Shown: one piece after another, positions 20,627 to 26,830 of the stretch
Layout: each line of letters begins with the position of its first letter
How positions within the stretch are numbered: the stretch's first letter is position 1
Assembly: GCA_027339055.1 (NCBI GenBank)
Contig: DAHWRK010000002.1
Location: 1-64,000 of the forward strand
DNA: 64,000 bases
Direction of reading: 5' to 3'
Source of the DNA: Microcaldota archaeon
GTDB lineage: Archaea > Micrarchaeota > Micrarchaeia > Micrarchaeales > Micrarchaeaceae
Notes under the pieces: model-generated
What the model was told of the DNA's origin: nothing
What the model saw: the letters and a program-made list of their open reading frames with translations, nothing else
Databases searched by the model: none
Translations under genes and position numbers: made by a program

Positions 20627-23600
20627 TTACTGCATCGTCAGATTGTTGTGGACGTAGCTGGGCTTCTGCGGGATCGGAGGAAGTCCGCCAGTGTAATTAG
20701 TTATTTCCAGTATCCTTAGAGGATATGTTCCATTTATGAGGTTTTCGCCAGGCGTAGTTGTTGCATTTGGATATACCTGCTTGAACCCTGGCAGCGTGCC
20801 GAACATGAAGCCCTTGTAGAAATTGGATATGTAGAACGATGACGGAGCGTCAGTTATTGTGTCGTTTGGGCCGTTTGGCATATATACCATAAGGTACTGG
20901 ACGAAGTCTATTCCGTCTATTCTAGTTACACCCAGATCATACGATAGAGGTATCATTGCGTTGAGCTTGGTGCCGTTGCTGTTGTAGAGCTGTATGTCGC
21001 CATTCTTCGTTGGTGACGTGCTGGCGCACACGGTAGTGTTTGAAAGCGCATCGCCTATCGCAGTGTATGCTTTTATGTAAAGGTTTGTGCTGTTCGAGAT
21101 TGAGCAGTAGTAGTTTATGTTCTGCGACGTGCTTGAGCTTGGAGGCTCGAGAGCTGCAAGAGGCAGGAATGCATATTCAGGATCGTGGCTTACCTCGCAA
21201 GGGGAAGTGCCAAGGACGTAAGGCGTTGGCGTGCTCTGTGCTGCTCCCTGCGCTATGGCGTACGCCCTTGAAGTCTCGTTTACATGAACACATGCCAGGA
21301 AGTCGAGAGCCTGCCATTTCTGTATTAATCCCTGGTCAAACACTATGTAGCGCGTCTGGTTTGTATTCATCATGTTCTGCAGCACTGCTGGTGTGTAATT
21401 GTCTTTCGGGCCCAATACGTAGCTTGCTGCGACAGCATAGTCTTCAGTAGGCACGGAATTGTCTCCGCGTATTACTGCATTGCTGTGCCCGAACCAGTTT
21501 ATCCAGTCGCCGTAGTCCCACCATGCCAGAACGCGAGGTGCGTTGGGGCCAACGTTCGCACGCATCCATGCAGTAGCTGAAAGCCAGTAGCTCGGCACAA
21601 CGTTGCAGAAGAGGTCGTATCCTATGCTTGACGTAGCAGCTATCGTACTGCAAGCAGTTGCAGGGTTTGAAGAGAATACCGAGCTAGAACTTAGCGCAGA
21701 CACCACCGGGCTTATCTCTCCGAGCATCAGGCTGCCGTTGAGCAGCGTGCCTGCTACGAATATTATCAGGAATATGCCAAAGACATACCATAGCTGCTTT
21801 TTGTACTCATCCATCTTGTGCATCAATATAAGCGCTATTATGAATATTAGAGCAAATATAGGAGATATGAAGAATATTCCAAGACTTATCGCCGCGGTTA
21901 TGTAGAACTCTGCGTTCTTTACGGGCTTTGCATCAAACATGTCAGTATATCTTGTATTTGTAGCAAGCTCATAGATGAAGCCGCCTGCTACACCCATTAT
22001 TATCGCCAATATTATGCCATAGAACGAGCCGAGTATTATGAGTATCGCGCCGAGGGCCACCAGTATGCCTATTATCGCAGCTTCGGCGTACTTGAGCTTG
22101 AACCCGTTCCTGAATAGGTATATGCCCTCTCCGAGCATTATACAGAACAGCATTATGTACACTGTGCCAAAGTGGGGCAGATATTTCACTTCTGAGAAAC
22201 CCGCGAACATCAGCGGAGTTGCTATCGAAAGGTAAAGTATTGACGTGTTGCTTTTTTTGTAGAATATGCTCAGGACTATCAGAACCATGGCCACTATGCT
22301 TATAACCCATATGAGAATGGGTATGCCTGCAATGTCCGCGCCTATGAACCCAAAGCCAGAAGCACCAAAGTTATACGTTGCCCCTGTCGGTATAAATTCT
22401 TCTACAGTCATGAACAGCGGAGTAGAGGGCGTTGTGAACCTCTTGCTGAGGTTTACATATGCGGTTATCGGCTTTCCGATAGGAGTAAAGGCTATTGCAA
22501 TAAAAGCGATTATTATTATTAGGGCTATCCATTCCAAGTATGTCTTTATATTGACTTCCTTGAAAAGGATATTGCGCTTTGCCAGCATTTCAGGTATAAA
22601 CTCTATTACCGCAACGAATATTAGCGCAAAGAGGGGTCCGCTAACAGTTATAGGTATGCCAAGAATTGAAGGAATCCTTCCTGACAGGGTTGCATGATAC
22701 GGGTTGTACATTGCCAGGAATATGGCTATTACTATTATGACTATCGCATTCATTTGGTAGAAGTACTTGCTTGTCTTGTTCTGAAGCACGTTGACTATGC
22801 CCTGAACTATTATGTATATTGTTAGCACGCCTGCATCTACTGTATAATAGTGCGCGCCGAGGAATGTAGTTACGAATGCAAGACCTGCAAGTATGGCAAG
22901 GCGCTTGCTCTTCATGTCCTTAATCGCCAGCGCATACGCGGCGAAGAAGAAGAAAAGAGTGAATATGCCCCACGGCTCCAGCAGCTGTTCGCCGGAAACG
23001 AAGGTAGTGTAGAGCACAGGCATTGTGGATGCAAGCGCTGCGCCTATGAGCGCTATCTTATTGCCGTATTCGTAATAAAGAAGTATAAATACCGAGAAAA
23101 CCAGCAGTGCTGCCGTTATCGGCGGGTATATTCCCCCAACATAGCTCATCAGCGTAGTGGAGAACGTTGTGTACTTAGGCCCGAAGGCATTCGAAAGGTC
23201 ATACCAATAGGCTTCCAGATACGGAACCACTGGCTGCATTCTCATGCTTGTGCCCTGCGGCACTACCGGCCAGGCGCTTGGCGAGAGATAAATTTGATAG
23301 CCGAACGTGAGTATCGACTCCGCGGAAAGCATGTCGAAGTACGGATCAAACTCGAAGAACTTCGGAGTTATGCCAACGCTCATCATGCGCGTTCCAAAAA
23401 CCAGAAGCATTAACAGGGCCAAAACCAGATAGGTCTTGTTTATCTGCATGCCGGATTTTGCCGCCACAGTCTTTGCTGCGTTGCTGGAAAGCTTGTTAAG
23501 CAGTATGCGCTCTTCCTGCTCGTGGTCCTTTATGAGCCTGTTTCTCTCGTCGGACTGGAGCGCGTTTATGCGTTGCTTATCCTGTTCTGACAGGTTTATG

Positions 23601-24085
23601 GCATTGAGCTCCCTGGTATGCCTTTCCGAAAGCACCTTCTCCTCTTCTATATGCTTTTCGATTATTGATTTGGCCGCGTCGAAGGACCTGAGCTGATGCC
23701 TCAGTTCCGAGAGCTCCATTGCTTCTCGCTGTTTCATGATGTCGAGCTCTGCTTCCTCGGCCTTTGCCTCGCTCTTTCTTGATGCTGGATTTGATAAATT
23801 AAGCTTGAATACCCCCTGCCACAGGCACAGTATTATGCCGACTATGGACAGGACTAAAGCGTTTACCTCTACAAGGGCAAGCGAGAAAGCGAAGAAATGT
23901 ACGTAATTCATTAGGTAGGACTCGAGCCAAGTGAGGGTCGGCACTGCAACGAGGCCGAATATGAATCCGATTATGGAGATCTCGAAAAGCCCGAGCTTTG
24001 TCTTCTTTAGCAGGGCTAATGCGAAGAGCTCTCCCGGTATCGTAAGCGTCAAAAACGCTATTATGCCAACAAGCAATATGTCCAT
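20627..24085 (-). CDS. aglB: AglB/STT3 oligosaccharyltransferase with N-terminal membrane + coiled-coil extension
   Basis: WWDYGDWINWFGHSNAVIRGDNS catalytic motif; FEFDPYFDM DxD-type loop; 1152 aa. Confidence 0.92.
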   Translation of the reverse strand: MDILLVGIIAFLTLTIPGELFALALLKKTKLGLFEISIIGFIFGLVAVPTLTWLESYLMNYVHFFAFSLALVEVNALVLSIVGIILCLWQGVFKLNLSNPASRKSEAKAEEAELDIMKQREAMELSELRHQLRSFDAAKSIIEKHIEEEKVLSERHTRELNAINLSEQDKQRINALQSDERNRLIKDHEQEERILLNKLSSNAAKTVAAKSGMQINKTYLVLALLMLLVFGTRMMSVGITPKFFEFDPYFDMLSAESILTFGYQIYLSPSAWPVVPQGTSMRMQPVVPYLEAYWYDLSNAFGPKYTTFSTTLMSYVGGIYPPITAALLVFSVFILLYYEYGNKIALIGAALASTMPVLYTTFVSGEQLLEPWGIFTLFFFFAAYALAIKDMKSKRLAILAGLAFVTTFLGAHYYTVDAGVLTIYIIVQGIVNVLQNKTSKYFYQMNAIVIIVIAIFLAMYNPYHATLSGRIPSILGIPITVSGPLFALIFVAVIEFIPEMLAKRNILFKEVNIKTYLEWIALIIIIAFIAIAFTPIGKPITAYVNLSKRFTTPSTPLFMTVEEFIPTGATYNFGASGFGFIGADIAGIPILIWVISIVAMVLIVLSIFYKKSNTSILYLSIATPLMFAGFSEVKYLPHFGTVYIMLFCIMLGEGIYLFRNGFKLKYAEAAIIGILVALGAILIILGSFYGIILAIIMGVAGGFIYELATNTRYTDMFDAKPVKNAEFYITAAISLGIFFISPIFALIFIIALILMHKMDEYKKQLWYVFGIFLIIFVAGTLLNGSLMLGEISPVVSALSSSSVFSSNPATACSTIAATSSIGYDLFCNVVPSYWLSATAWMRANVGPNAPRVLAWWDYGDWINWFGHSNAVIRGDNSVPTEDYAVAASYVLGPKDNYTPAVLQNMMNTNQTRYIVFDQGLIQKWQALDFLACVHVNETSRAYAIAQGAAQSTPTPYVLGTSPCEVSHDPEYAFLPLAALEPPSSSTSQNINYYCSISNSTNLYIKAYTAIGDALSNTTVCASTSPTKNGDIQLYNSNGTKLNAMIPLSYDLGVTRIDGIDFVQYLMVYMPNGPNDTITDAPSSFYISNFYKGFMFGTLPGFKQVYPNATTTPGENLINGTYPLRILEITNYTGGLPPIPQKPSYVHNNLTMQ

Positions 24086-25387: not shown

Positions 25388-25780
25388 TTATTTCTGCGAC
25401 AGGAACTTGCTTCCGCGCGTTGCCTTTATTCCAGGTGCAGAGTGCTGCACGCGCCTTGTCGAGTAGACGAATTCGCCGAGCCTGTGCCCGAGCATTGCCG
25501 GCTGAATCTCAACGTGCTGGTATTCCTTGCCGTTATAAATATCAAAAGAAAGGCCGATCCAGGACGGCATTATTAGGGCTTCCCTTGTCCTAGTCTTTAT
25601 AGGGCTTGTGGATCCCGAAGCCTTGGTATGCTCTATCTTCTCGTTCAGCTCTCTCAGCTGAAGCGAGTTTCTCTTGAGCCAGCGCCTCTGCCTTGACTTT
25701 ATCAGCTTCGAGTACTGTGCGGCATCTATGCCAGCTGCTTCCGCAGGGAGCATGCCCTTGAATGCTATCCTTTCGACCAT
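25388..25780 (-). CDS. rps19: 30S ribosomal protein uS19
   Basis: IQPAMLGHRLGEFVYSTRRVQHSAPGIKATRGSKFLSQK. Confidence 0.93.
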   Translation of the reverse strand: MVERIAFKGMLPAEAAGIDAAQYSKLIKSRQRRWLKRNSLQLRELNEKIEHTKASGSTSPIKTRTREALIMPSWIGLSFDIYNGKEYQHVEIQPAMLGHRLGEFVYSTRRVQHSAPGIKATRGSKFLSQK

Positions 25781-25811: not shown

Positions 25812-26042
25812 TTATTTTGCAGCCTTCCTTCCGCGTGCCTGCTTTACCCTTGATACATAGCCGTTGCTGTCCACGAAGTAAAGGAAGCCCTTCTCTCTTT
25901 CTACTTTTTCGTTGCCTACCTTGGCCTTCCTTCCGGACTTGTTCGACCTAGTCGGATTCTGCCATACGTAGCCGTCCTTTCCGAGATAATACAGGTATCC
26001 CTCCTCTCTCTTTATTGCTTCTCTCGAAATTTTTTCTGCCAT
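25812..26042 (-). CDS. small basic protein with two internal repeats, inside the ribosomal cluster
   Basis: REEGYLYYLGKDGYVWQ... and REKGFLYFVDSNGYVSR...; between uL2 and uS19. Confidence 0.7.
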   Translation of the reverse strand: MAEKISREAIKREEGYLYYLGKDGYVWQNPTRSNKSGRKAKVGNEKVEREKGFLYFVDSNGYVSRVKQARGRKAAK

Positions 26043-26116
26043 GTCAACACCATTTAGTGTATTTTTATTTGTAAGCAAAGCTTTTAAACCACATCTTTTG
26101 TTTTGCTTTTAGAGGT

Positions 26117-26830
26117 TTACCTCTTTTTCCTGCCTACGCGGCGCGCCGCTATGTGGCCTACCTTCCTTCCTGGAGGTGCGTTCCTTGATGTCATGCTGCT
26201 CTTTCCCTTGTGGTGCTGCTTGCCTCCGAACGGGTGGTCCACGGGGTTCATCTTTACTCCACGGTTCCTCGGCCACGTCCTGTTTAAAGTGTGATACATG
26301 TAATGGCTCTTGCCTGCCTTTACTATTGGCTGATCCTTTACTCCAGCGCCTGCTATCATGCCCAGCTGGGCCCTGCAGGCGCTGTCTAGAGTTACTGTCT
26401 GCTTTGAAGGCAGCTGGAGCGTAACATTACGCTCGGACTTCGCGATTATAACTGCGAACGAGCCGGCTGCCCTGACGAGCTTGCCTCCGTCGCCTTTAAG
26501 CACCTCTAGGTTGTATACGGGAACCCCCTCTGGGACGTCACCGAGCCTGACTATGCTTCCGAGAACGGGCTTGGCATCAGGTCCCATGTAAATCTTGTCC
26601 CCTATCTTTATGCCTTCTGGCGCTACGTAAAAACCCCTGTTGAAGTCCTCGTACACAACGCACATAAGTGGCGCGCTGTGGCCGGTATGGTTGAATATGT
26701 CTATTACCTCTGCGCTCATGCTTACGTCAGGGGCCTTTTCATAAGCTACGCTTATGTCGAATGTGTTGGGCAGCTTGGTGTATACGTTGGAACCCTTGCC
26801 CCTTCTCTGCTGTCTGAGTTTCTTTCCCAT
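26117..26830 (-). CDS. rpl2: 50S ribosomal protein uL2
   Basis: MGKKLRQQRRGKGSNVYTKLPNT...MNPVDHPFGGKQHHKGK. Confidence 0.95.
   Translation of the reverse strand: MGKKLRQQRRGKGSNVYTKLPNTFDISVAYEKAPDVSMSAEVIDIFNHTGHSAPLMCVVYEDFNRGFYVAPEGIKIGDKIYMGPDAKPVLGSIVRLGDVPEGVPVYNLEVLKGDGGKLVRAAGSFAVIIAKSERNVTLQLPSKQTVTLDSACRAQLGMIAGAGVKDQPIVKAGKSHYMYHTLNRTWPRNRGVKMNPVDHPFGGKQHHKGKSSMTSRNAPPGRKVGHIAARRVGRKKR

What the first reader, a model, noticed from the sequence alone, without database searches (positions are those of the whole stretch)
25812..26042. Uncharacterised two-repeat basic mini-protein embedded between uL2 and uS19
A ~76-aa protein contains two copies of a REEGYLYYLGKDGYVW / REKGFLYFVDSNGYVSR motif and a basic tail, inside the S10-type cluster where no gene is normally present. 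Candidate lineage-specific ribosomal protein or ribosome-associated factor.
Basis: partly seen in the sequence, partly recalled or inferred. Interest (0 to 1): 0.6.

Follow-up and report, generated by a model that had tools for sequence, protein, structure and literature searches.

The report
Widespread unnamed two-repeat basic mini-protein
The small gene lodged among ribosomal protein genes is real, but it is a relocated duplicate of a tiny basic protein found in most small symbiont-like archaea and in several bacterial phyla, which nobody has named, and which most likely binds nucleic acid rather than being a part of this one lineage's ribosome.

Summary
An ATG-started 76-aa gene (minus strand, 25812-26042) lies between uL2 and uS19, with two clearly homologous ~35-aa repeats and pI 10. 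It is under strong purifying selection (dN/dS about 0.03-0.1).

The gene is one paralogue (copy B). The main copy (A) sits elsewhere, next to a PAC2 gene in two families, and the family occurs in 243/295 genomes of the phylum. Outside it: 96/119 (Woesearchaeota's phylum), 59/60 Elusimicrobiota, 29/60 Marinimicrobia, 36/78 Omnitrophota, 18/115 Myxococcota, 12/98 Thermoplasmatota and some viral contigs. So it is not lineage-specific.

The S10-cluster position is seen in only two genera, and copy B has its own conserved TATA-like box. No Pfam or NCBIfam model matches above its cut-off. AlphaFold2 gives a confident small beta domain (pLDDT 85-88) with no PDB match. Many members carry H1-like Lys/Arg tails, and the domain is also fused to other domains (HIT, nitroreductase, TIR).

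Best guess (0.45): a nucleic-acid-binding module, nucleoid- or RNA-associated; copy B is a tail-less paralogue. A ribosomal role is neither shown nor excluded. The family, an uncharacterised near-core protein in both prokaryotic domains, matters more than its position here.

The parts
25812..26042 (-). Gene of the 76-aa two-repeat basic mini-protein (copy B), ATG start, TAA stop
   Evidence: 8 orthologues in the genus with dN/dS about 0.03-0.1; relatives
25932..26036 (-). Repeat unit 1 (residues 3-37), EKISREAIKREEGYLYYLGKDGYVWQNPTRSNKSG; predicted hairpin strands 16-20 and 26-30
   Evidence: half-versus-half alignment; AlphaFold2
25824..25925 (-). Repeat unit 2 (residues 40-73), AKVGNEKVEREKGFLYFVDSNGYVSRVKQARGRK; predicted hairpin strands 53-57 and 63-67
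   Evidence: half-versus-half alignment; AlphaFold2
26081..26088 (-). TATA-like box TTTAAAAG, 39-46 nt before the start codon
   Evidence: Conserved in 7 of 8 species, and as TTTAAAGG in the eighth, where the upstream gene is not uL2. Promoter function is inferred, not shown
26048..26051 (-). Possible ribosome binding site GGTG, 6-9 nt before the start codon
   Evidence: invariant in all 8 species
26117..26830 (-). uL2, upstream neighbour (not part of the feature)
   Evidence: NF007180, 276.8 bits over cut-off 265
25388..25780 (-). uS19, downstream neighbour (not part of the feature)
   Evidence: PF00203, 78.8 bits over cut-off 27

Best explanation
The gene is copy B, a tail-less paralogue of a widespread, unnamed family of small basic proteins. 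Each consists of two copies of a ~36-aa unit (KVxKxGVKKExGYLYFVDKxGDVSRAKMARGGKK) that is predicted to fold into a compact all-beta domain. It most likely works as a nucleic-acid-binding module: aromatic (YLYF) and basic (SRxKMxR) residues of the repeated hairpins would form the binding face, and in many members a flexible Lys/Arg-rich tail adds non-specific affinity, as in bacterial H1-like and HU-tail proteins. Whether the target is DNA (nucleoid) or RNA/ribonucleoprotein is open. In the window's genus and some sister genera the gene was duplicated. The ordinary copy A stays beside a PAC2 gene, and copy B was placed between uL2 and uS19, where it is expressed from its own promoter and possibly also by read-through from the ribosomal operon. 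SHOWN: the gene, the repeat, selection, the family and its distribution, two paralogues, different locations, domain fusions, and the absence of a curated family. PREDICTED: the fold, the promoter. INFERRED: nucleic-acid binding and its mechanism.
For: Median pI 10.4 over 185 family proteins. Basic tails of at least 15 residues in 36 of 184 two-motif proteins, among both archaea and bacteria (sequences). Conserved G/Y/F/K/R pattern in both repeats across phyla. AlphaFold2 pLDDT 84.7 (window protein) and 88.4 (Elusimicrobiota relative), all beta. C2H2-type finger fusion, with sub-threshold Pfam hits, and Cys-rich Zn-ribbon-like N-termini in L208 and L209 (no Pfam hit). In Endomicrobia and a few other bacteria the gene lies near an HTH excisionase-type ORF (class assigned by eye). 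Copy A and copy B form separate clades (copy B of g1, g10, g17 and g18 together 97/89), and all other genus-g1 genomes have both copies. Conserved TATA-like boxes of both copies.
Against: No binding data of any kind. No homology to a known nucleic-acid-binding fold by sequence or by structure. Most members have no long tail, and the tail could simply be a generic basic tail. Fusions to a HIT hydrolase, nitroreductase, TIR and membrane segments fit a protein- or ligand-binding module equally well.
Confidence: 0.45

Rival explanations
1. It is a ribosome-associated factor (a supernumerary ribosomal protein, assembly factor or hibernation-like factor) whose S10-cluster copy reflects stoichiometric co-expression with uL2 and uS19.
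For: Small and basic; embedded between uL2 and uS19 in two genera; near-universal or common in several reduced-genome phyla; adjacent to aspS in L110 and L117, and uL3 lies about 4 kb downstream in L121 and L178.
Against: The position is not shown to be ancestral and is not conserved. Copy B lies outside the cluster in sister genera g10, g17 and g18. It has its own conserved promoter-like element. Distribution is patchy in Myxococcota, Omnitrophota and Thermoplasmatota, unlike a ribosomal protein. No match among all PDB chains, which include archaeal and bacterial ribosomes. The domain is fused to enzymes and membrane segments.
Confidence: 0.2
2. The domain is a portable protein- or ligand-binding (targeting) module. 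The stand-alone protein is a small adaptor, comparable in manner of work (not in ancestry) to WW or SH3-like domains.
For: Fusions to HIT, nitroreductase, TIR, NOV_C, coiled-coil and transmembrane regions; aromatic GYLYY...W..P pattern in the first repeat of this phylum.
Against: Very high basicity and H1-like tails in stand-alone members are unusual for an adaptor. WW membership is not supported (Pfam E 0.3, below cut-off).
Confidence: 0.2
3. It is a cargo or accessory gene spread by viruses and mobile elements, with no housekeeping role; its core-like distribution comes from repeated transfer.
For: Relatives on 6 of 7 recovered viral contigs confirmed by profile, up to a 430-kb contig; patchy distribution in several bacterial phyla.
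Against: No match in 50,697 phage or 72,556 plasmid records. 59 of 60 Elusimicrobiota and 84 of 96 good genomes of this phylum carry it, mostly one or two copies. In two families of the window's phylum it sits in a conserved neighbourhood beside PAC2.
Confidence: 0.08

Closest known systems
Unannotated proteins of Woesearchaeota, Elusimicrobiota (Endomicrobia), Omnitrophota, Marinimicrobia and Myxococcota (this same family)
   Same: Two GYLYFVDKxGDVSRxKM repeats, same length and basicity; 573 or more loci in one capped scan
   Different: Those members keep the KVAKVGVKKE and MARGG blocks. This phylum's version has GKDGYVW..P in repeat 1 and IxxEKI in place of VAKVGV; copy B also replaces KMNR with KQARGR
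Histone H1-like nucleoprotein HC2 (Pfam PF07382) and other Lys/Ala-tailed nucleoid proteins
   Same: KKAAKK- or RRKTARKK-type basic tail in many relatives
   Different: Mostly the low-complexity tail resembles it (E 0.48, below cut-off); no long tail in copy B
Short-blade beta-propeller repeats (designed Cake and Bagel proteins, PDB 6tjh, 8prj)
   Same: DGYLYxID-G hairpin pattern, repeat period about 40 aa
   Different: Single-repeat scores are only 8-10 bits; no hit with the window protein or with the profile; only two repeats; no fold match, TM at most about 0.33
WW domain (PF00397)
   Same: G-x-x-YY-x-D hairpin with a W and P downstream in repeat 1
   Different: Pfam E 0.3 in one relative, below cut-off; repeat arrangement and first W not matched
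PHROG 9154 (phage protein, 70 aa, unknown function)
   Same: Matches residues 2-26 of a relative, E 1.2e-5
   Different: Only E 0.0044 for the window protein; partial; function unknown

Membership tests
Ribosomal protein (lineage-specific) | Conserved position in a ribosomal protein cluster across the lineage | tested here: not met
   11 of about 100 same-phylum loci, in two genera only
Ribosomal protein (lineage-specific) | Restricted to, and universal in, the lineage | tested here: not met
   Nearly universal in the phylum (84 of 96 good genomes) but also in at least six other phyla of both domains
Ribosomal protein (lineage-specific) | Physical presence in purified ribosomes | not testable with these tools
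   No sequence match to any solved chain; no ribosome structure from these phyla was examined
Cross-domain two-repeat GYLYFVDKxGDVSRxKM family | Two copies of the unit with the shared invariant positions | tested here: met
   Alignments A1 and A3, 37-55% identity to other-phylum members, nine invariant columns; iterated profile links the window protein with L110-L189
WW domain | Score above the Pfam cut-off, two signature Trp, three-stranded sheet | tested here: not met
   E 0.3 in one relative only; none for the window protein
Beta-propeller blade proteins | Fold match or significant profile match | tested here: not met
   Foldseek best E 0.38, TM at most about 0.33; profile against PDB best E 0.26, not a propeller
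Nucleoid-associated or RNA-binding protein (works like) | Binds nucleic acid | not testable with these tools
   Only basicity, tails and fusions

The most novel reading that the evidence does not exclude
An unrecognised core nucleic-acid- or ribosome-binding protein family with its own small fold, shared by DPANN-type archaea and several bacterial phyla, near-universal in Elusimicrobiota and this phylum and common in the Woesearchaeota-containing phylum, with copy B recruited into ribosomal protein expression.
Probability: 0.3. Interest if true: 0.75.

Novelty: new variant of a known kind. Interest (0 to 1): 0.5.

Why it matters
A protein of under 80 residues that is present in 59 of 60 sampled Elusimicrobiota and in most DPANN-type genomes, in both prokaryotic domains, yet has no curated family, no solved relative and no proposed function that I could find, is an obvious gap in what counts as a core prokaryotic gene. 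It is small, probably soluble, and occurs in a phylum with cultured members (Elusimicrobium, Endomicrobium; own knowledge), so its binding target can be tested directly. If it is nucleoid- or ribosome-associated, it would be a shared component of very reduced genomes in both domains.

Tried and rejected
Pfam, NCBIfam and PHROG scans: nothing above a curated cut-off for the window protein. PDB sequence hits to designed propellers rejected: repeated 8-10-bit matches, no support from the profile, the window protein or fold searches. Foldseek against PDB with two models and against viral structures: no hit better than E 0.38. First viral scan with the single protein: no relative; with a profile, 7 loci. 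Phage and plasmid collections: none. A weak match in G085 (E 0.27) was read, looked like chance next to a tRNA-like stretch, and was dropped. Sigma-70 and terminator scan and Rfam: nothing relevant. Missing copy A in the window's own genome: its whole neighbourhood (PAC2, DUF192, aldehyde dehydrogenase) is absent from the assembly, which is 54% complete, so this is best explained by incompleteness. Paper searches for the family or its peptide: nothing. Whether candidate phyla radiation bacteria carry it could not be tested; no such genome appeared among the 80 loci returned.

Full report
WHAT IS THERE. On the minus strand, 25812-26042 encodes a 76-aa protein with an ATG start: MAEKISREAIKREEGYLYYLGKDGYVWQNPTRSNKSGRKAKVGNEKVEREKGFLYFVDSNGYVSRVKQARGRKAAK. 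Its neighbours are archaeal-type uL2 (74 bp upstream) and uS19 (31 bp downstream), within uL3-uL4-uL23-uL2-[gene]-uS19-uL22-uS3. The two halves align far better than shuffled halves (68 against a maximum of 45 in 20,000). Eight species of the genus show dN/dS of about 0.03-0.10 for well-diverged pairs, so the protein is selected.

NOT LINEAGE-SPECIFIC. Of 60 relatives, 57 carry a relative of the protein, as do 243 of 295 genomes sampled across the phylum (84 of 96 good-quality ones). A genome scan with a degenerate alignment found at least 573 loci. The first row of that alignment was a consensus I recalled for non-Micrarchaeota members; it served only as bait. The best 80 loci belong to Woesearchaeota and related DPANN, Elusimicrobia/Endomicrobia, Omnitrophota, Marinimicrobia, Myxococcota and 'Deltaproteobacteria', Nitrospirae-labelled bins, Auribacterota, an Acidobacteria bin and a Marine Group III archaeon. 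Translation confirmed two-repeat proteins of the same design in all of them. Profile surveys by phylum: 96/119 (phylum of a Woesearchaeota locus; some of these are partial, single-repeat matches), 59/60 Elusimicrobiota, 36/78 Omnitrophota, 29/60 Marinimicrobia, 18/115 Myxococcota, 12/98 Thermoplasmatota.

TWO PARALOGUES. All seven other genomes of the window's genus have two copies. Copy B is the S10-cluster gene. Copy A lies elsewhere, divergent from a PAC2-family gene (PF09754), and in this genus carries a long Lys/Arg/Ser tail. A PAC2 gene was found beside 55 of 85 copy-A loci, all in the two nearest families. Copy B of g1 groups with extra copies of genera g10, g17 and g18 (97/89), apart from copy A; those extra copies are not in the S10 cluster. 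The g21 copies, in the S10 cluster, have an unstable place next to the outgroup in this short alignment, so one insertion followed by loss and two insertions cannot be told apart. In one genus member (G005, L008) the cluster itself is broken upstream of copy B. The window's own genome lacks copy A together with its neighbourhood, which is explained by 54% completeness.

OWN PROMOTER. The 70 bp before copy B are 85-92% identical between species whose synonymous divergence in the gene is about 0.8-0.95, and contain TTTAAAAGCTTTGC (TATA-like) and GGTG before the ATG. The TATA-like box persists as TTTAAAGG in L008, where the upstream gene is not uL2. Copy A has its own conserved box, GATAGTTATTTAAA. 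Copy B therefore need not depend on the ribosomal operon; this is inference from sequence.

STRUCTURE AND ARCHITECTURE. AlphaFold2 with cross-phylum alignments gives pLDDT 84.7, pTM 0.68 for the window protein and pLDDT 88.4, pTM 0.72 for an Endomicrobia relative: all beta, two or three strands per repeat. No solved or viral structure matches (best E 0.38). No Pfam or NCBIfam model passes its cut-off. Of 184 two-motif proteins, 36 carry a basic tail of at least 15 residues. The domain is also found within larger proteins: HIT hydrolase (L202, L207), nitroreductase (L204, L214), TIR (L211), NOV_C (L213), C2H2-like finger (L040, sub-threshold), Cys-rich N-termini (L208, L209), coiled-coil-like and membrane regions. 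Single-repeat versions occur in small DPANN-type genomes and on viral contigs L226 and L227.

HOW IT MOST LIKELY WORKS. High basicity, repeated aromatic-plus-basic hairpins, H1-like tails and zinc-finger-like fusions point to nucleic acid binding; enzyme, TIR and membrane fusions show that it is a portable module. Genome context outside this phylum is not ribosomal (aspS, ackA, KamA with an HTH excisionase-type ORF, a Hef-like helicase, UvrA; several of these names are assigned by eye). I put 0.45 on a nucleic-acid-binding protein, 0.2 on a ribosome factor, 0.2 on a protein- or ligand-binding adaptor. None of these is shown.

VERDICT. Observation confirmed; 'uncharacterised' confirmed; 'lineage-specific ribosomal protein' not supported. 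The valuable part is the family itself.

Noticed in passing
L202, L204, L207, L211, L213, L214, L203, L208, L209, L040, L041, L218: The same repeat domain is fused to HIT hydrolase, nitroreductase, TIR, NOV_C, zinc-finger-like, coiled-coil and membrane regions; the TIR and NOV_C fusions in Myxococcota resemble defence proteins.
   Followed up: partly
L221-L224, L226, L227: Viral contigs (up to 430 kb) carry the domain; L226 and L227 encode a 45-aa single-repeat version.
   Followed up: partly
L110, L117: In two Nitrospirae-labelled bins the gene lies directly downstream of aspS, and L182 (Elusimicrobia) also has aspS nearby.
   Followed up: no
L121, L178: In two DPANN loci uL3 lies about 4 kb downstream of the gene; in L121 a Hef-like helicase ORF lies in between.
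   Followed up: no
Window 26043-26116: The copy B leader holds a possible stem AAGCAAA...TTTGCTT around the TATA-like box, intact in L001-L005, weaker in L006-L007 and absent in L008; possible operator.
   Followed up: no
L008 (G005): The S10 cluster is broken directly upstream of copy B, with a KaiC/RadA-like ATPase ORF in place of uL2.
   Followed up: no
Window 20627-24085: A 1152-aa multi-membrane-span ORF with a WWDYGDWI motif, resembling an oligosaccharyltransferase (AglB/STT3) by eye, follows uS3 on the same strand.
   Followed up: no
G085, G088, G091, G092, G074 (same class): Several fairly complete genomes of other families in the class lack a detectable copy, so the protein may be dispensable in some lineages.
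   Followed up: partly
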